12,475 nucleotides of DNA from Prevotellaceae bacterium (lineage in GTDB: Bacteria; Bacteroidota; Bacteroidia; Bacteroidales; UBA932). A model generated the notes under the pieces. That model was not told the origin of the DNA, made no database searches, and was given only the letters and a program-made list of their open reading frames with translations. Each line of letters begins with the position of its first letter. Positions within the stretch are counted from its first letter, which is position 1. Positions 3,594-12,475 of the stretch are shown here, piece after piece. The position numbers and the translations under genes were made by a program. The stretch is taken from the NCBI GenBank assembly GCA_031288885.1, contig JAITQP010000253.1:1-12475 (forward strand). Direction: 5' to 3'.

Positions 3594-4574
3594 TTAGGAT
3601 GAAAGGTAGCGGACGTCAAATAGCCTGCTGTTACGATTTCTAATATTCTTGCGGAACATAAAACCTATCCGCACCGTAACGCCAAATGAGAGCAGGTAGG
3701 TTGCCTTAGCGCCGCCGCCCGCTACGCTTGCAGACGGATTATAGCGGAGCTGATAGTAGGTGGGCGCCGGTTGCGTTTCGTACTCCATTAAAGCCGACGA
3801 GGAGGAGCTGGCAGCGCTGTTATAAAAGCAATACTCCCCAAACACCCCTGCATACAGGGCATATTTGTCCGTCAGCTGCTGCCTAAATCCCATCTCAAGG
3901 TGGCCTACGGCGTGTAAGCCTAAATCCATGTTCGCCTTTACGTCAACGTCACCCTTATTTCCGAAGCCTAAATATGGCGGCGCTTCCGTAATCTCAACAT
4001 TTTCATAAGCCAGCTTTCCGCTAACGGCTAACCCCTTAATGCTGGCATTGCTGCTACCGGCGATTGAGTAGCCGGCCTTTACGCCTCCGGTGGCATACCA
4101 GCCTATGTACTTGCTGCCCGAGAACAGGGTTTCAAGCTCAACCAGCAGCGGAACCTGCACGTAAAGCGCAGACTTCTGAGCCGCGTAGTCGCTTATCTTA
4201 ATGTTAGCTTGGTAATCGTTGTAGTCATTACCCATTTCTTTGGGGGGTTGCCCGCTTTCCCACCACCCCAGCTCGTCGGGGAAAGTTCCCTGCATGCTTT
4301 CGCTTATCCCAGACATGTCCGTTGTGCTCTGGTAGTAGTTGACATGAAGACCCGTCCTGACGCTTAGGGCGCTGGAAAAGTGGCAGGAGTATCCCATTCC
4401 TCCCCCGTAGCCTATGCCGTAGCGGCTATTCCCCGACGACGTAGGGGCAAGGTTGGAGTTGAGCATGCTAAGACTTCCTAATATTTCATGATTAAATCCT
4501 GCTGCCGATGCAACCGGAGTACTATTCCCCGCCAACAACATTGGCAAGAAAAAAACAAATTTCTTCAAGTTCAT
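3594..4574 (-). CDS. outer-membrane beta-barrel protein, porin-like, function unknown
   Basis: A 326-residue protein with an N-terminal signal peptide (MNLKKFVFFLPMLLAG, cleavage near ASA-AG at about residue 24). The rest alternates short amphipathic strands rich in Tyr, Gly and Ser, such as RYGIGYGGGMGYSCHF, GLHVNYYQS, GWYATGGVKAGYSI and YALYAGVFGEYCF. This is the pattern of a small outer-membrane beta-barrel of the OmpW/porin-like kind. The final strand, LLSFGVTVRIGFMF, is followed by a basic tail. The OMP end signal is therefore not at the very C-terminus, which is slightly unusual. No family beyond beta-barrel is recognised, and it lacks the PorP/SprF N-terminal signature. It lies upstream of the OmpA-propeller gene on the same strand, so the pair may form an outer-membrane/peptidoglycan complex. 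A promoter and long leader lie upstream (4575-4877). Confidence 0.72.
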   Translation of the reverse strand: MNLKKFVFFLPMLLAGNSTPVASAAGFNHEILGSLSMLNSNLAPTSSGNSRYGIGYGGGMGYSCHFSSALSVRTGLHVNYYQSTTDMSGISESMQGTFPDELGWWESGQPPKEMGNDYNDYQANIKISDYAAQKSALYVQVPLLVELETLFSGSKYIGWYATGGVKAGYSIAGSSNASIKGLAVSGKLAYENVEITEAPPYLGFGNKGDVDVKANMDLGLHAVGHLEMGFRQQLTDKYALYAGVFGEYCFYNSAASSSSSALMEYETQPAPTYYQLRYNPSASVAGGGAKATYLLSFGVTVRIGFMFRKNIRNRNSRLFDVRYLSS

Positions 4575-6631: not shown

Positions 6632-8416
6632 ATGAACAGTAGATTTCAAGGAGAATGGCCTAAAATCGGCATCCGCCCCACCATCGACGGGCGCATGGGG
6701 GGCGTGCGCGAGTCCCTCGAAGAGCAAACCATGAACATGGCAAAGAGCGTGACGCTGCTGCTCACGTCCACGCTCAAAAATCCGGACGGCACGCCCGTTT
6801 CGTGCGTCATTGCCGACAGCACCATCGGCAGGGTGGCGGAGAGCGCCGCCTGCGCCGAGAAGTTCCGGCGCGAGGGCGTGGGCGTTACCATCACCGTTAC
6901 CCCCTGCTGGTGCTACGGCAGCGAAACGATGGACATGGAGCCGCACACGGTGAAGGCCGTTTGGGGCTTCAACGGCACGGAGCGCCCGGGCGCCGTGTAC
7001 CTCGCGGCGGTGCTGGCGGGGCACGCGCAGAAAGGGCTGCCGGCGTTCGGCATCTACGGGCGCGACGTGCAGGACGCGGGCGCGACCGAAATCCCCGACG
7101 ACGTAAGGGTTAAGCTGCTCCGCTTTGCCAGAGCGGCTATGGCGGTGGCCACCATGCGCGGCAAGTCCTACCTCTCCATCGGCGCGGTGTGCATGGGCAT
7201 TGCGGGGTCTATCGTCAGCACCGGCTTTTTTGAGGACTACCTCGGCATGCGCTGCGAGGGCGTGGACGAGGTGGAAATCATCCGGCGCATGAGCGAGGGC
7301 ATTTACGACAAGGAGGAATTTGAAGCGGCGCTGGCGTGGGCCAAAAGCCGCTGCCGCGAGGGCGAAGACGCTATCAACCGCGCCGACCTCAAGAAAGACC
7401 GCGCCGGACGGGATAAGGACTGGGAGTTTATTGTGAAAATGACGCTCATTGTGCGCGACCTGATGACGGGCAACCCCAAGCTAAAGGAAATGGGATTTGG
7501 GGAGGAAGCGCTGGGGCACAACGCCATCGCCGCCGGATTTCAGGGGCAGCGGCAGTGGACGGACTTCTACCCCAACGGCGACTTTACGGAGGCCATCCTC
7601 AACTCGTCGTTCGACTGGACGGGCGTCCGCGCGCCCTACGTGCTGGCCACCGAAAACGACGCGCTGAACGGCGCCGCCATGCTCTTTGGCTACCTGCTGA
7701 CGCACACCGCGCAGGTGTTTGCCGACGTGCGAACGTACTGGAGCCCCGAGGCGGTGGAGCGCGTTACCGGCAAAAAGCTCGAGGGGCCGGCCTCCGGCGG
7801 GATGATACACCTGATTAACTCGGGCGCAGCGTCGCTCGACGGCAGCGCCCGCCAAACGGGTGCAGACGGGAAGCCAGCCATGAAGCCGTTTTGGGACATT
7901 ACGGAGGCCGAGGCCAAAGCCTGCCTTGAGGCCACCACGTGGATGCCCGCCAACCGCGAGTACTTCCGCGGAGGCGGCTTCTCCTCCAAGTTCCTCACGC
8001 GCGGCGGAATGCCCTGCACCATGGTTCGCCTAAACCTCGTGAAGGGGATAGGCCCCGTGCTACAGCTCGCGGAGGGCTGGACGGTGGACGTTGACCCCGC
8101 CATCCACAAAATTCTGGACGAGCGAACGGACAGGGGCTGGCCTACCACGTGGTTTGCCCCCCGCCTGACGGGCAGCCCCAACTTCAAGGACGTGTACTCG
8201 GTGATGAACATGTGGGGCGCCAACCACGGCTCCATCAGCGGCGGGCACATTGGCGCCGACCTCATTACGCTGGCGTCCATGCTGCGCATACCCGTCTCCA
8301 TGCACAACGTGAGCGACGACGACATCTACCGCCCCGCCGCATGGGCTGCCTTTGGCATGGATAAGGAGGGCGCCGACTACCGCGCCTGCCAAACCTACGG
8401 ACCATTGTATAATTAA
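6632..8416 (+). CDS. fucI: L-fucose isomerase
   Basis: A 594-residue cytoplasmic isomerase converting L-fucose to L-fuculose; family members also isomerise D-arabinose. Residues corresponding to the E. coli FucI (591 aa) metal and catalytic positions Glu337, Asp361 and His528 are all present at a constant offset of four: E341 in [10 protein letters not shown]365 in [10 protein letters not shown] and H532 in ANHGS. The N-terminus ([13 protein letters not shown]) and C-terminus ([12 protein letters not shown]) match the family. The frame extends to 6587, but ATG 6632 gives the normal N-terminus, and the upstream part overlaps the promoter. There is no obvious Shine-Dalgarno site, only an A-rich stretch before the start. 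fucP follows after 86 nt and is probably cotranscribed. Fuculokinase and fuculose-phosphate aldolase are not in the window. Codons look GC-rich compared with the flanking intergenic DNA. Confidence 0.97.
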
Positions 8417-8500
8417 GAATTACGAATTAGGAATTAGGAATTAGGCTGACGCGTTAGCTTAATTTCTAATTTGTAATTCGTAATTTCCAACTCGTAATTC
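8417..8500. repeat. inverted array of GAATTAG-type heptad repeats
   Basis: Left arm: GAATTAC, GAATTAG, GAATTAG, GAATTAG in tandem from 8417 to 8444. The right arm (about 8459-8500), read on the other strand, gives GAATTAC, GAGTTGG, AAATTAC, GAATTAC, AAATTAG, AAATTAA. The arms can fold into a long imperfect hairpin with a small loop near GACGCG. It fills the whole fucI-fucP gap and begins directly at the fucI stop codon. It could act as an mRNA stability or differential-expression element. Confidence 0.8.
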
Positions 8501-8502
8501 AC

Positions 8503-9798
8503 ATGGAAAAAATTGTACCCAAAGCGTTAATCTTCCCGTTCATTCTGGTAACAACGCTGTTTGCCCTATGGGGCTTTGCGAACGACATCACCAACCCCAT
8601 GGTGGCCGCCTTTAAAAACATTCTGCTCATCTCCAACTTTGAGAGCTCGCTGGTGCAGTTTGCCTTCTACGGCGGTTACTGCCTGATGGCAATTCCGGCG
8701 GCGATTTTCATAAAAAAATTCAGCTACAAAAGGGGGATTTTGGTGGGGCTTGGGCTGTACTCTGCGGGATGCTTTCTGTTCATTCCCGCCGGAAATACCA
8801 TGGCATTCTGGGCGTTTCTCATGGCCTACTTTGTGATGACCTGCGGCTTGGCGTTCCTCGAAACCACCTCCAACCCCTACATTCTGTCGATGGGCGCGGA
8901 GGAAAGCGCGACGCGCCGCCTCAACCTTGCGCAGGCGTTCAACCCCATTGGCTCGCTCACGGGAATGCTGGTGGCCAAGGAGGTGATACTTTCGCGGCTC
9001 AACAAAGCCACCGAAGCCGACCGGCTCGCGCTGCTGAATGGCGACCCCGAAGCCCTCGCCGCCGTTCAGCAATCCGACCTCAACATCGTCAGCGGCCCCT
9101 ACCTGATGCTCGGGGCGGTGGTGCTCGCGTTCTTCATCATTTTTGCCGTGTCGAGGTTGCCGCAGGCTACCGCCTCGCAGGGCGTGGCGCGGCAGTCCTC
9201 CACCCGCGCGGTGGCGCGGCGGCTTTTGGGCAACAAGCTCTACATCCGGTCGGTGATTGCGCAGGCGTTTTACGTTGGCGTGCAGATTATGGTGTGGACG
9301 TTCATCATCCAGTATGCCGAGCAGGAGCTGGGCATGAGCAAAGCCACCGCGCAGGGCTACAACATGGTCGCCATGGCGCTATTTGTTTCGAGCCGGTTTA
9401 TCTGCACCTTCCTGCTGAAGTACTTCAAGCCGAGCGCGCTGCTCACGTGGCTTGCCGTAGGCGGCGCCCTGTGCACCGCAGGCGTTATATTCATACACGG
9501 CATGGTTGGGTTGTGCTGCTTAGTCGCCATTTCGGCGTGCATGTCGCTCATGTTCCCCACCATCTACGGGATTGCGCTGAAAGGCTTGGGCGACGACGCC
9601 AAGCTGGCCTCCGCCGGCCTGATACTCGCCATTGGCGGCGGTTGCCTGATGCCGCCCTTGCAGGGCTTGCTCATCGACAAGGCGGTTTGGTTTGGCGACG
9701 CGCTGTCGTCGGTGCGCGTTTCGTTTGCGCTGCCGCTGGTATGCTTCATCGTCATTGCGCTGTTTGGGAGCTGGGTGGGGAGAAGAATTAGGAATTAA
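8503..9798 (+). CDS. fucP: L-fucose:H+ symporter, major facilitator superfamily
   Basis: A 431-residue inner-membrane transporter importing L-fucose with protons. About twelve hydrophobic segments are visible from PFILVTTLFALWGFAND to the C-terminal LPLVCFIVIALFGSW. The residues matching the two acidic positions essential in E. coli FucP (Asp46 and Glu135) are D28 in GFANDITNP and E120 in GLAFLETTSNP. Other family motifs are QFAFYGGYCLMAIPA, RRLNLAQAFNPIGS and FPTIYGIALKGLG. It lies 86 nt downstream of fucI, has no -7 box of its own in the heptad-repeat gap and is presumably expressed with fucI. The last four residues and the stop codon (RIRN then TAA) are encoded by a heptad repeat that continues after the gene, so the C-terminus has probably been altered by repeat insertion or growth. 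Confidence 0.95.
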   Translation: MEKIVPKALIFPFILVTTLFALWGFANDITNPMVAAFKNILLISNFESSLVQFAFYGGYCLMAIPAAIFIKKFSYKRGILVGLGLYSAGCFLFIPAGNTMAFWAFLMAYFVMTCGLAFLETTSNPYILSMGAEESATRRLNLAQAFNPIGSLTGMLVAKEVILSRLNKATEADRLALLNGDPEALAAVQQSDLNIVSGPYLMLGAVVLAFFIIFAVSRLPQATASQGVARQSSTRAVARRLLGNKLYIRSVIAQAFYVGVQIMVWTFIIQYAEQELGMSKATAQGYNMVAMALFVSSRFICTFLLKYFKPSALLTWLAVGGALCTAGVIFIHGMVGLCCLVAISACMSLMFPTIYGIALKGLGDDAKLASAGLILAIGGGCLMPPLQGLLIDKAVWFGDALSSVRVSFALPLVCFIVIALFGSWVGRRIRN

Positions 9799-9812
9799 GA
9801 ATTAGGAATTAT
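9785..9812. repeat. four tandem GAATTAG-type heptads overlapping the fucP stop
   Basis: GAATTAG, GAATTAA, GAATTAG, GAATTAT in direct tandem. This is the same unit as in the fucI-fucP gap. The TAA stop of fucP lies in the second unit. Confidence 0.85.
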
Positions 9813-10339: not shown

Positions 10340-11512
10340 ATGATGAAAAGTACAACAATTTTAGGAATTTCCATGCTGTTAGCAGGGATAGCAGGCATGG
10401 CGCCCGCCAGGGTACAGGCTGCGAGCATGGCGGTGCTGGTGGTAGGTTTAGAGACAGATGCGGCGAGCGACGTGTTTGCGGCGGGCATACGGTACGAATT
10501 TGGGCAAAAGGGGTACACGATGATAACCAGCCCCGCGGTTTCAGCCAAGCAAACCGCGCTGCGCAACCTGCACAAGCAGAGCCAGCCGGTAGACACGGCG
10601 GGCCTGGCGGCGTGGGGTAGGGAGAACAGCATAGACTTTGTGCAGCTGGTGGTAGAGAACGATTGTACGATAACGATAGAAGGGGTAGCAAAGAGCGGAC
10701 GTGAGCAGCTAGCGCAGGTAGTACGCTGCGGCGTGGCGCAGTACTCGGAGCGCGGTTATTACCGGACACGGTTCATTCCGCAGCCGCCCGACCCCAATCC
10801 CAATTTAGGGACAGGCTTTGAGGAGATGGTGTATGTAGCGGGAGGTGTATTTGAGATGGGGTGGAAGAGTGGCAGGGATGGGACGCCCTACAACGGCAGT
10901 GAGAAGCCGTGTCACTACGTGCGGGTTAACAGTTTTTACATAGGGAAGTATGAAGTAACGCAAGCGCTGTGGAAGAAAGTGATGGGATCGAATCCGAGTG
11001 CATACAGCGGGGATAACAAGCCGGTGGAGCAGGTAAGTTGGGAGGATATAACGAATAGCACGAGTGGGTTTCTTAAGAAGTTGAATGCACTTACGGGGAA
11101 AAACTACCGGTTACCGACGGAAGCGGAGTGGGAGTACGCGGCGCGTGGGTGCAACGCTGGAGTATGCGAGAGTTACGAGTACAGCGGGAGCAACACGGTA
11201 GGGGACGTGGCTTATTGTGGCACTTCAGGGGGGGCAACGACAGTAGGCAGCAAGCGAGCGAATGGGCTAGGTCTTTACGACATGAGCGGGAATGTAGCTG
11301 AGTGGTGCGGGGACTTGTATAGCGATACATATTATCCCTCAGGCACAACAGCGTCTAGTCCGCAGGACAACCCCACGGGGCCTACGAGTGGCTCTGACCG
11401 CGTGAACCACGGTGGCAGTTGGAGCCACGCCGCGAGCTACAGCCGTGTAGCCCGTCGCGGCAGCAACGGGCCTAATTTCCGCGGCGACGGAAATGGTTTC
11501 CGCCTAGTGTAG
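10340..11512 (+). CDS. secreted SUMF1/FGE-sulfatase-domain protein with a DGR-type variable C-terminus
   Basis: A 390-residue exported protein. The signal peptide spans residues 1-27 (cleavage VQA-AS). An N-terminal domain (about 28-150, SMAVLVVGLETDAASD to the ENDCTITIEG region) may be of the CsgG/TolB-N kind seen in similar Bacteroidota proteins; this is tentative. A proline-rich linker (QPPDPNPN) leads to a SUMF1 domain with C-type-lectin fold from about residue 163 (MVYVAGGVFEMG). Its motifs are FYIGKYEVTQALW, PVEQVSWED, YRLPTEAEWEYAARG (from R257) and YDMSGNVAEW (M315 onwards), ending in GFRLV. The two cysteines needed for formylglycine generation fall in the CxxxxC region, where this protein has S368 and R373. 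It is therefore probably a binding scaffold, not an enzyme. Residues 351-390 are the variable repeat matched by the template-like copy at 11752-11904. The start is the first of two adjacent ATGs and there is no Shine-Dalgarno. The likely role is ligand binding outside the cytoplasm. Confidence 0.88.
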   Translation: MMKSTTILGISMLLAGIAGMAPARVQAASMAVLVVGLETDAASDVFAAGIRYEFGQKGYTMITSPAVSAKQTALRNLHKQSQPVDTAGLAAWGRENSIDFVQLVVENDCTITIEGVAKSGREQLAQVVRCGVAQYSERGYYRTRFIPQPPDPNPNLGTGFEEMVYVAGGVFEMGWKSGRDGTPYNGSEKPCHYVRVNSFYIGKYEVTQALWKKVMGSNPSAYSGDNKPVEQVSWEDITNSTSGFLKKLNALTGKNYRLPTEAEWEYAARGCNAGVCESYEYSGSNTVGDVAYCGTSGGATTVGSKRANGLGLYDMSGNVAEWCGDLYSDTYYPSGTTASSPQDNPTGPTSGSDRVNHGGSWSHAASYSRVARRGSNGPNFRGDGNGFRLV

Positions 11513-11541
11513 CCGTAGCTCCGCTAGTTTTGGTTTGGCCT
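11389..11541 (+). repeat. variable repeat (VR) of a DGR-like pair
   Basis: This covers the last 40 codons of the SUMF1-domain gene, its stop and 29 nt beyond. It aligns without gaps over 153 nt to 11752-11904. By hand count over the 41 codons from GGC TCT, there are 34 differences. Seventeen fall on the 29 adenines of the other copy and 17 on its 94 other bases. The final 30 nt (11512-11541) are identical in both copies. Changes mainly alter residues at the lectin-fold ligand face, such as AAC codons replaced by AGC, CAC, TAC, GGC, TTC or GGA. Confidence 0.8.
11512..11541 (+). promoter_or_regulatory. identical 30-nt tail shared by VR and TR, candidate initiation-of-mutagenic-homing (IMH) site
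   Basis: The 30 bases at 11512-11541 recur exactly at 11875-11904. They start at the last base of the VR stop codon and include a small hairpin, TAGC-TCC-GCTA, and complementary ends GCC/GGC. A conserved block at the 3' border of VR and TR is where DGRs start target-primed homing. That role is inferred from position and identity. Confidence 0.5.
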
Positions 11542-11579
11542 TAAAGTTTATCCTGTTGGCGTTCTATCTTTCCTGTAAG

Positions 11580-11632
11580 TTCTCGCTTCGCCGGTCTGCG
11601 GAGCGGAGCGGAGCAGGACAAGGCGAAGCGAG
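11580..11632. repeat. 11-bp perfect stem downstream of the VR
   Basis: CTCGCTTCGCC (11582-11592) pairs perfectly with GGCGAAGCGAG (11622-11632). The 29-nt loop contains GGAGC-type repeats, and two more outer T/A pairs form if GCGA bulges. It begins 40 nt after the VR tail. Some DGR targets need a hairpin just after the VR, though this one is larger and further away than the model case. It may instead be a plain REP-like element. Confidence 0.55.
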
Positions 11633-11638
11633 CGAGAA

Positions 11639-11665
11639 GCCGCCTGTGGCGGCAAATTTTTTTTT
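11639..11665 (+). terminator. intrinsic terminator of the SUMF1-domain gene
   Basis: GCCGCC (11639-11644), loop TGT, GGCGGC (11648-11653), then AAA and nine T's (11657-11665). It is a strong rho-independent signal. It separates the variable gene from the template-like copy, which must therefore be transcribed from another start or by read-through. Confidence 0.85.
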
Positions 11666-11751
11666 GATTTTGACAATTAACGGCTTTTAGGAGTTTTTTT
11701 AACGTGTAGGGGATGACCTTGGTTCTTCCCCTCATCGGGAGCCCGCCACAA

Positions 11752-11904
11752 TGGCTCTAACCGCGTGCTCCGCGGTGGCAGTTGGAACAACGACGCGAGC
11801 AACAGCCGCGTAGCCTATCGCAACAACAACACGCCTAGCAACCGCAACAGCAACGTCGGCTTGCGCCTTGTGTTGCCGTAGCTCCGCTAGTTTTGGTTTG
11901 GCCT
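11752..11904 (+). repeat. template repeat (TR)-like copy, non-coding
   Basis: A second copy of the VR, without a gene body. Upstream sequence shows no SUMF1 motifs, and the copy starts abruptly near TGGCTCT. Read in the VR frame it encodes [13 protein letters not shown]... to ...GLRLVLP and a stop, with nine AAC codons exactly where the VR varies. AAC-rich templates are the hallmark of DGRs, because adenine-specific mutagenesis of AAC cannot create a stop codon. The 3' end is identical to the VR tail. It could alternatively be the remnant of a second SUMF1 gene, but only its last 41 codons and tail exist. Confidence 0.75.
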
Positions 11905-12050
11905 CAGCTTACAGGTAAAGACGGATGTCATCAAGTAAACAGGCGGGATGCCCAGACCCTCGCGCAGGTGGGGGCGAATAGCGGGGGAGTTTCTCCCCCC
12001 AGAAAGGTGGTGCTAGTAGCTACGCGCGAACGTGAAACCTTTCTTTTTAG
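11905..12050 (+). ncRNA. hairpin-rich segment following the template repeat (possible 3' part of a TR RNA)
   Basis: Directly after the TR tail are two strong stems: GGGGGAG/CTCCCCC with loop TTT (11983-11999), and AGAAAGGT (12001-12008) with ACCTTTCT (12037-12044). The second stem has a 28-nt loop and ends in TTTTT then AG. In DGRs the RNA downstream of the TR is folded and needed for cDNA synthesis; the position and structure fit, but conservation was not tested. One frame stays open from 11839 to a stop at 12072 but has no good start, so I do not call a gene. Confidence 0.4.
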
Positions 12051-12423: not shown

Positions 12424-12475
12424 ATGACCATCCACAGGGAAGGAACCATGACCATAACGCTGACGCTGGCGGTGC
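12424..12475 (+). CDS. psd: start of a probable phosphatidylserine decarboxylase (partial, cut by window end)
   Basis: Only 17 codons are present, reading MTIHREGTMTITLTLAV. The IHREGT motif followed at once by a hydrophobic segment matches the N-terminus I know from Bacteroidota phosphatidylserine decarboxylases. These convert phosphatidylserine to phosphatidylethanolamine at the inner membrane. The preceding terminator and perfect -7 box make it the first gene of a new unit. The call rests on a short motif, and the catalytic part lies beyond the window. Confidence 0.55.
   Translation, partial: MTIHREGTMTITLTLAV

What the first reader, a model, noticed from the sequence alone, without database searches (positions are those of the whole stretch)
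11389..11904. VR/TR pair of a diversity-generating retroelement at a secreted SUMF1-fold protein
Directly visible: the 3' end of the SUMF1-domain gene (11389-11541) is duplicated gap-free at 11752-11904. The second copy is non-coding and AAC-rich. By hand count 17 of its 29 adenines differ in the gene copy, against 17 of 94 other bases. Established: DGRs diversify C-type-lectin-fold proteins, including SUMF1-like ones, by adenine-specific mutagenic retrohoming from a TR. Inference: this locus is or was a DGR target, so the protein displays a variable binding surface.
Basis: partly seen in the sequence, partly recalled or inferred. Interest (0 to 1): 0.9.

Follow-up and report, generated by a model that had tools for sequence, protein, structure and literature searches.

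The report
Detached template of a hypermutation retroelement
A short non-coding stretch beside a receptor-like gene is the RNA template of a targeted-mutation system whose copying enzyme was not found next to it, and the same genome carries many similar genes whose tips vary at the positions the template marks.

Summary
The repeat is real: 153 bases, gap-free, 34 mismatches; 17 of 31 template adenines differ against 17 of 122 other bases (p=6e-6). 11752-11904 is a genuine DGR template repeat (TR): a structured spacer RNA follows it (11906-12046), found at E=1e-14 by a covariance model built only from other genomes' RT-linked spacers, and its adenines mark the variable columns of paralogues and homologues. 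No RT was found on this contig. Two DGR-type RTs lie on other contigs, without a TR downstream. The assembly holds a second detached TR (C170) with a clean product (C120), and 58 SUMF1-domain matches against 3-23 in ten congeners. Correction: the neighbouring VR is not a clean product of this TR; 8 of its 18 amino-acid changes cannot come from adenine mutation, whereas the best-fitting metagenomic homologue has 10 of 11 allowed. Best reading: a DGR whose template RNA genes are detached from the RT and act in trans. Detached TRs also occur in other genomes and trans activity is published. Whether an RT lies farther along the chromosome is unresolved.

The parts
10340..11512 (+). SUMF1/FGE-sulfatase-domain gene (390 aa), signal-peptide-like start (by eye), domain at residues 161-390
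   Evidence: ORF list; Pfam PF03781 1.4e-41; best solved relative by sequence 2y3c 2.5e-30
11389..11512 (+). VR: variable 3' end of the gene, up to and including its stop codon
   Evidence: 57 homologues: identity to this VR 0.16 at the 18 TR-adenine codons against 0.73 at the 22 other VR codons
11513..11541 (+). non-coding tail shared by VR and TR (IMH-like by position; name recalled)
   Evidence: 29 bases without a mismatch to 11876-11904; present after several other copies in the genome
11695..11751 (+). 5' leader of the TR unit, conserved with the second TR (C170); short stem in both
   Evidence: alignment; the match to C170 starts at window 11695; folding energy of 11707-11755 not better than shuffles (z 0.33), that of C170's leader better (z -2.25)
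11752..11904 (+). TR: non-coding template repeat rich in AAC codons
   Evidence: resembles TRs found next to DGR RTs in other genomes
11906..12046 (+). Sp: structured spacer RNA downstream of the TR; terminal hairpin (12001-12008 with 12037-12044) followed by a T-run
   Evidence: covariance model R1, 59.3 bits, E 1.2e-14; covariation; but energy z-score only 0.15
12424..12475 (+). start of the next ORF (MTIHREG..., phosphatidylserine-decarboxylase-like by recall, not tested); the contig ends inside it
   Evidence: translation

Best explanation
11695-12046 is the template-RNA gene (leader, TR, spacer RNA) of an HRDC-type diversity-generating retroelement, and 10340-11512 is one of many SUMF1-fold genes of the target type in the same genome. 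RNA made from the unit would be bound through its spacer by the RT and HRDC protein encoded elsewhere (contig C67, possibly the RT of C272 too), copied with random bases at adenines, and written into the VR-type 3' ends of SUMF1 genes, giving receptor-like proteins with varied tips. Shown here: the TR, the spacer RNA, two RTs without a downstream TR, the adenine-marked variation, and one clean TR/VR product pair elsewhere in the genome. Inferred: transcription, action in trans, present activity, and what the proteins bind.
For: Covariance model R1, built from 33 RT-linked spacers of other genomes, hits the window at 59.3 bits and C170 at 56.4 bits; in the own genome these are the only matches below E 0.1 (where 150 of 497 first-look candidates were scored). 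On 43 aligned spacers (window, C170 and 41 others, 33 of which built the model) 253 cells changed on both sides against 73.9 in shuffles (0 of 500), 91.5% of cells paired. Paralogues C282/C174 differ at 19 of 29 columns where the window TR has A and at 4 of 91 others (p=2e-11); C142/C131 at 23 of 29 and 21 of 91 (p=8.5e-8). Unselected, end-anchored set of 55 copies: entropy at codon positions 1-2 is 1.86 at A columns and 1.43 elsewhere, 0 of 5000 permutations as high. C170 TR to C120 VR: 7 of 24 adenines and 1 of 111 other bases differ. RT, and HRDC-domain ORF overlapping its start on C67. P0009, the best-fitting of 120 listed proteins: 10 of 11 differences from the window TR allowed by A-to-N.
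Against: The adjacent VR is not a clean product of this TR. The window spacer folds no better than shuffles (z 0.15; C170 z -2.29) and breaks about 5 of the 18 model pairs where C170 breaks about 2, so it may be decaying. One covariation measure is not above shuffles (15 pairs with a change on both sides against 14.1; 188 of 500), and the alignment was fitted to the model. Contigs end 429 bases after the spacer, 30 bases before the HRDC ORF of C67, and inside the RT of C272, so linkage at a distance is not excluded: two other genomes have the order TR, target gene, HRDC, RT (L201, L203). No perfect hairpin (stem 5 or more, loop 3-5) was found in the 75 bases after the gene, although BPP-1 needs one (PMC3240598, passages). 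NCBIfam names no DGR model for the RTs; the best match is group II intron RT, below its cut-off, so 'DGR-type' rests on the relatives' TR/VR pairs.
Confidence: 0.84

Rival explanations
1. The TR unit is a decaying relic: it once served as template here, but the working template is now C170 or an unassembled TR, and the window VR was last written from another template.
For: Window VR has 17 non-adenine mismatches and 8 unreachable changes; weak folding of the window spacer; four VRs (window, C149, C19, C171) share a 3' end that differs from this TR; the genome is only 79% complete.
Against: The window spacer scores higher than C170's against the model (59.3 and 56.4 bits); P0009 of another assembly fits this TR with one exception.
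Confidence: 0.35
2. The TR is linked to an RT farther along the chromosome, beyond the contig end, so this is an ordinary cis DGR broken by assembly.
For: The contig ends 429 bases after the spacer; two RTs and two TRs are in the assembly; two of eight inspected non-adjacent cases in other genomes have the TR upstream of target gene, HRDC and RT.
Against: Another ORF begins at 12424; both own RTs lack a downstream TR, whereas 46 of 57 spacer matches in 39 genomes lie 0-700 bases downstream of an RT.
Confidence: 0.25
3. 11752-11904 is just the broken 3' end of a duplicated SUMF1 gene, with no retroelement role.
For: It encodes a recognisable SUMF1 C-terminus (Pfam match 27.9 bits).
Against: A conserved spacer RNA follows it, a leader shared with C170 precedes it, its adenines predict variation elsewhere, and a second copy has the same flanks.
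Confidence: 0.03

Closest known systems
HRDC-type DGR of Treponema denticola (PMC4891356, passages seen)
   Same: FGE-sulfatase-domain targets, HRDC accessory, remote targets away from the core
   Different: There the accessory lies between TR and RT in all nine DGR isolates; here the TR unit stands without RT or accessory on its contig, and two TR units and two RTs are assembled
Thiohalocapsa PB-PSB1 DGRs (PMC10907252, section 5 and passages seen)
   Same: Several DGR loci in one genome, some lacking key parts, some targets best explained by action in trans
   Different: There each class keeps one complete locus and 15 targets are reported; here no complete locus is assembled and 58 SUMF1 matches are found (not all proven targets)
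Cyanobacterial DGRs with remote variable proteins (PMC7517822, passages seen)
   Same: Paralogous targets far from the RT
   Different: There the TR is described inside the DGR locus; here the TR itself is away from the RT
Bordetella phage BPP-1 DGR (PMC3240598 and PMC12875486, passages seen)
   Same: TR followed by a structured spacer that recruits the RT complex; adenine-specific mutation
   Different: Avd instead of HRDC; parts in one locus; a hairpin after the VR is required, none found here by a simple search

Membership tests
Diversity-generating retroelement (DGR) | TR/VR near-repeat with mismatches concentrated at TR adenines | tested here: met
   17 of 31 against 17 of 122, p=6e-6; cleaner pair C170/C120: 7 of 24 against 1 of 111
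Diversity-generating retroelement (DGR) | Adjacent VR is a recent clean product of the adjacent TR | tested here: not met
This bears on the 'pair' claim; it does not define the family
Diversity-generating retroelement (DGR) | DGR-type RT in the genome | tested here: met
   C67 (336 aa) and C272 (partial), 80% identical; 71 of 80 GTDB relatives of the C67 RT gave an A-biased repeat near the RT end, one of them spurious
Diversity-generating retroelement (DGR) | RT in the same locus as the TR | tested here: inconclusive
   No RT match on the window contig and no TR or spacer downstream of either own RT, but contigs end nearby
Diversity-generating retroelement (DGR) | Accessory protein | tested here: met
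   HRDC domain 1.9e-15 in the ORF overlapping the RT start on C67; C272 is cut before that place
Diversity-generating retroelement (DGR) | Structured spacer RNA 3' of the TR | tested here: met
   Model R1, E 1.2e-14; covariation; folding energy of the window copy not better than shuffles
Diversity-generating retroelement (DGR) | Target with FGE (C-type-lectin-like) fold, VR at the 3' end | tested here: met
   by sequence only:
Diversity-generating retroelement (DGR) | Hairpin/cruciform just after the VR | tested here: inconclusive
   No perfect hairpin with stem 5 or more in the 75 bases after the window gene; the same search also returned none for 13 of the 15 relatives' VRs read in full
Diversity-generating retroelement (DGR) | Ongoing adenine-restricted variation in a population | not testable with these tools
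   No reads available; paralogues and homologues used instead
Rfam Chlorobi-1 RNA (RF01696) | Score above the family's gathering cut-off | tested here: not met
   16.7 bits against 50 in the window; no such match in 13 RT loci

The most novel reading that the evidence does not exclude
A fully split DGR: free-standing template-RNA genes, each with leader and spacer, serve RTs encoded at separate loci that have no templates of their own, and together they diversify several dozen SUMF1 receptor-like genes in one small genome, like a dispersed receptor repertoire with interchangeable templates; one template carries a stop codon and so can write targets off.
Probability: 0.35. Interest if true: 0.8.

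Novelty: new variant of a known kind. Interest (0 to 1): 0.6.

Why it matters
Template RNA that works away from its RT would make a DGR modular: templates could duplicate, diverge and be exchanged independently of the enzyme. The conserved spacer gives a handle (a covariance model) for finding templates without an RT next to them, which searches anchored on the RT would miss; it reached no Rfam 15 family's gathering score in the window or in 13 RT loci. 58 SUMF1 matches in a 2.5-Mb assembly, against 3-23 in ten congeners, would be a large DGR-type repertoire for a bacterium of unknown lifestyle.

Tried and rejected
Rfam Chlorobi-1 RNA as the identity of the spacer: a weak hit in the window, rejected after no gathering match in 13 RT loci. 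Broken duplicated gene end: rejected (see rivals). Phage or viral origin: no DNA match in 50,697 phage records; the viral-contig scan with the RT gave one pattern match and no confirmed relative. Synteny of the window in congeners: the MFS transporter was found in all ten, seven stretches were fetched; what follows differs or the contig ends, uninformative. Contig-end overlaps to link RT and TR contigs: none found; only C282 and C174 share a 119-base end, so they may be branches of one assembly graph or strain variants rather than distant loci. VR hairpin: inconclusive. The TR/VR finder found no pair on C67 or the first 9 kb of C272. The 15-copy entropy test selected copies on low non-adenine mismatch and is biased by that; the unselected test is the one to rely on. 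A literature search for 'orphan TR' and similar phrases showed no DGR paper among the ten listed of 51.

Full report
OBSERVATION. The hand count is exact for the first 123 bases: 17 of 29 adenines of the non-coding copy and 17 of 94 other bases differ. For all 153 bases: 17 of 31 against 17 of 122, p=6e-6; with the roles of the copies reversed the bias is weak (10 of 24 against 24 of 129, p=0.03). The repeat is real and directional, but half of the mismatches are not at adenines, which a recently written VR would not show.

THE GENE. 10340-11512 encodes 390 residues with Pfam FGE-sulfatase (SUMF1) at 1.4e-41. Among solved structures the best match by sequence is T. denticola variable protein 1 (2y3c, 2.5e-30), ten orders better than the next, a formylglycine-generating enzyme.

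THE NON-CODING COPY IS A TEMPLATE. Relatives of the own-genome RT were fetched from GTDB genomes (90 confirmed, the best 80 kept). A scan for adenine-biased repeats near the RT end returned one in 71 of 80 (part of the listing was cut); L175 is low-complexity and spurious by eye. L175 and L158 gave no TR end, leaving 69; six lacked the start motif, and after dropping short and near-duplicate ones 47 of 63 were kept. I aligned 33 of the 47, chosen by hand for clean ends. A covariance model of these 33, none from the own genome, finds the window at 11906-12046 (59.3 bits, 1.2e-14) and C170 at 4174-4317 (56.4 bits), and nothing on C67 or the first 12 kb of C272. In the whole own genome these two are the only matches below E 0.1; the first look scored 150 of 497 candidates. 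Structure test on 43 spacers (window, C170, 41 others of which 33 built the model): 91.5% of cells paired against 62.0 in shuffles, 253 double changes against 73.9, and sliding the partners drops pairing to 34.6-48.5%; the number of pairs with a double change (15) is not above shuffles (14.1), and the alignment was fitted to the model. Against the window copy, its spacer folds no better than shuffles (z 0.15) while C170's does (z -2.29).

ADENINES OF THE TEMPLATE MARK THE VARIABLE POSITIONS. I compared nine pairs of own-genome copies at columns of the window TR (29 A, 91 other). Seven were taken from the 25 flank-similar pairs listed, leaving out the others, many of which have insertions relative to the TR; two were added by hand. 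C282/C174 differ at 19 and 4 (p=2e-11), C142/C131 at 23 and 21 (p=8.5e-8); five further pairs among C79, C114, C174 and C282 and the pair window/C149 gave p from 8.8e-11 to 2.8e-5; C170/C120 gave 6 and 2 (p=0.0025). Pairs sharing a gene are not independent. C282 and C174 share a contig end, so they may be strain variants; their differences still fall on the template's adenines. All 55 copies with enough sequence, end-anchored and unselected: entropy at codon positions 1-2 is 1.86 at A columns and 1.43 elsewhere, 0 of 5000 permutations as high. Of 58 homologous proteins examined (P0002-P0059), 57 have an ungapped VR (53 from outside sources, four with no source listed): identity to the window VR is 0.16 at the 18 TR-adenine codons and 0.73 at the 22 others, while the rest of the protein is 0.68-0.88 identical in the 14 rows printed.

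WHICH TEMPLATE WROTE WHICH GENE. The C170 template and the C120 gene end differ at 7 of 24 adenines and 1 of 111 other bases; in protein terms 6 changes, none unreachable. Both contain a TAG stop; C120 lacks the N-terminal part of the domain. So the neighbours in the window are relatives, not immediate donor and product; the window VR shares its 3' end with C149, C19 and C171 and was probably last written from a template not assembled (inference).

WHERE THE ENZYME IS. RVT_1 finds two places in the own genome, C67 and C272, none on the window contig; the two are 80% identical. On C67 an HRDC-domain ORF (1.9e-15) overlaps the RT start. NCBIfam gives no DGR name to the RTs (best: group II intron RT below cut-off). 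Neither RT has a TR downstream. I gave 40 of the 80 relatives' loci as handles; 39 genomes were held and searched (L112 was not), with 86 candidates scored per genome, and 35 of 39 have a spacer match. Of 57 spacer matches 46 lie 0-700 bases downstream of an RT; of the 52 closest RT rows 44 have such a spacer, one of the eight misses being half of an RT listed in two rows. Of the 11 spacers without that neighbour I looked at eight: L197, L198 and L199 have a TR and a SUMF1-type gene and no RT match on the contig; L201 and L203 have TR, target gene, HRDC, RT in this order; L200 and L204 lie near contig ends; L202 has no TR. Detached templates are thus not unique to this genome, and a distant linkage here is not excluded.

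SCALE. The own genome (2.49 Mb, 79% complete) gives 58 SUMF1 matches, two of which are the templates and some of which are pieces of one gene; ten congeners give 3 to 23. Sixteen places besides the two templates match the window TR as DNA at E below 1e-3. None of the ten congeners showed the spacer (150 candidates scored per genome), and one has a distant RT (35% identity). How many of the 58 are DGR targets today is not proven.

LITERATURE. Trans activity and incomplete loci are described for Thiohalocapsa (PMC10907252: section 5 and passages), remote targets for cyanobacteria (PMC7517822: passages) and T. denticola, which also has HRDC accessories and FGE targets (PMC4891356: passages), several TRs or VRs per DGR in a genome survey (PMC6642488: passages), and the role of the spacer for BPP-1 (PMC12875486: passages). 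For PMC8144416 I saw three passages, none on this point. In the listings I saw no description of free-standing TR-spacer units together with RTs lacking templates; the library holds open-licence papers only.

VERDICT. A genuine DGR template unit and a DGR-type target; a new variant by its detached template and the size of the gene family; present activity and true distance to the RT remain open.

Noticed in passing
L035 (C170) 4021-4172; L036 (C120) 551-702: A template repeat that contains an in-frame TAG, found also in the gene end that matches it; adenine mutation of the TAG could remove the stop again, so such a template may switch targets off.
   Followed up: partly
L093 (C282), downstream of 69-359: A SUMF1 gene end is followed by what looks like the 3' half of the spacer RNA, a remnant suggesting recombination between a target and a template unit.
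   Followed up: partly
own genome G000: 58 SUMF1-domain matches in a 2.49-Mb, 79% complete genome, against 3-23 in ten congeners.
   Followed up: yes
L197, L198, L199: Template-spacer units with a SUMF1-type gene but no RT match on the contig in three other genomes.
   Followed up: partly
L112-L191: The roughly 140-base spacer RNA of HRDC-type DGRs is conserved and covarying; no Rfam gathering match was found at it in 13 loci.
   Followed up: yes
window 8401-8500 and 9783-9811: Short ATTAGGAATTA-type repeats lie on both sides of the MFS transporter gene; those before it form an 85% complementary inverted repeat.
   Followed up: no
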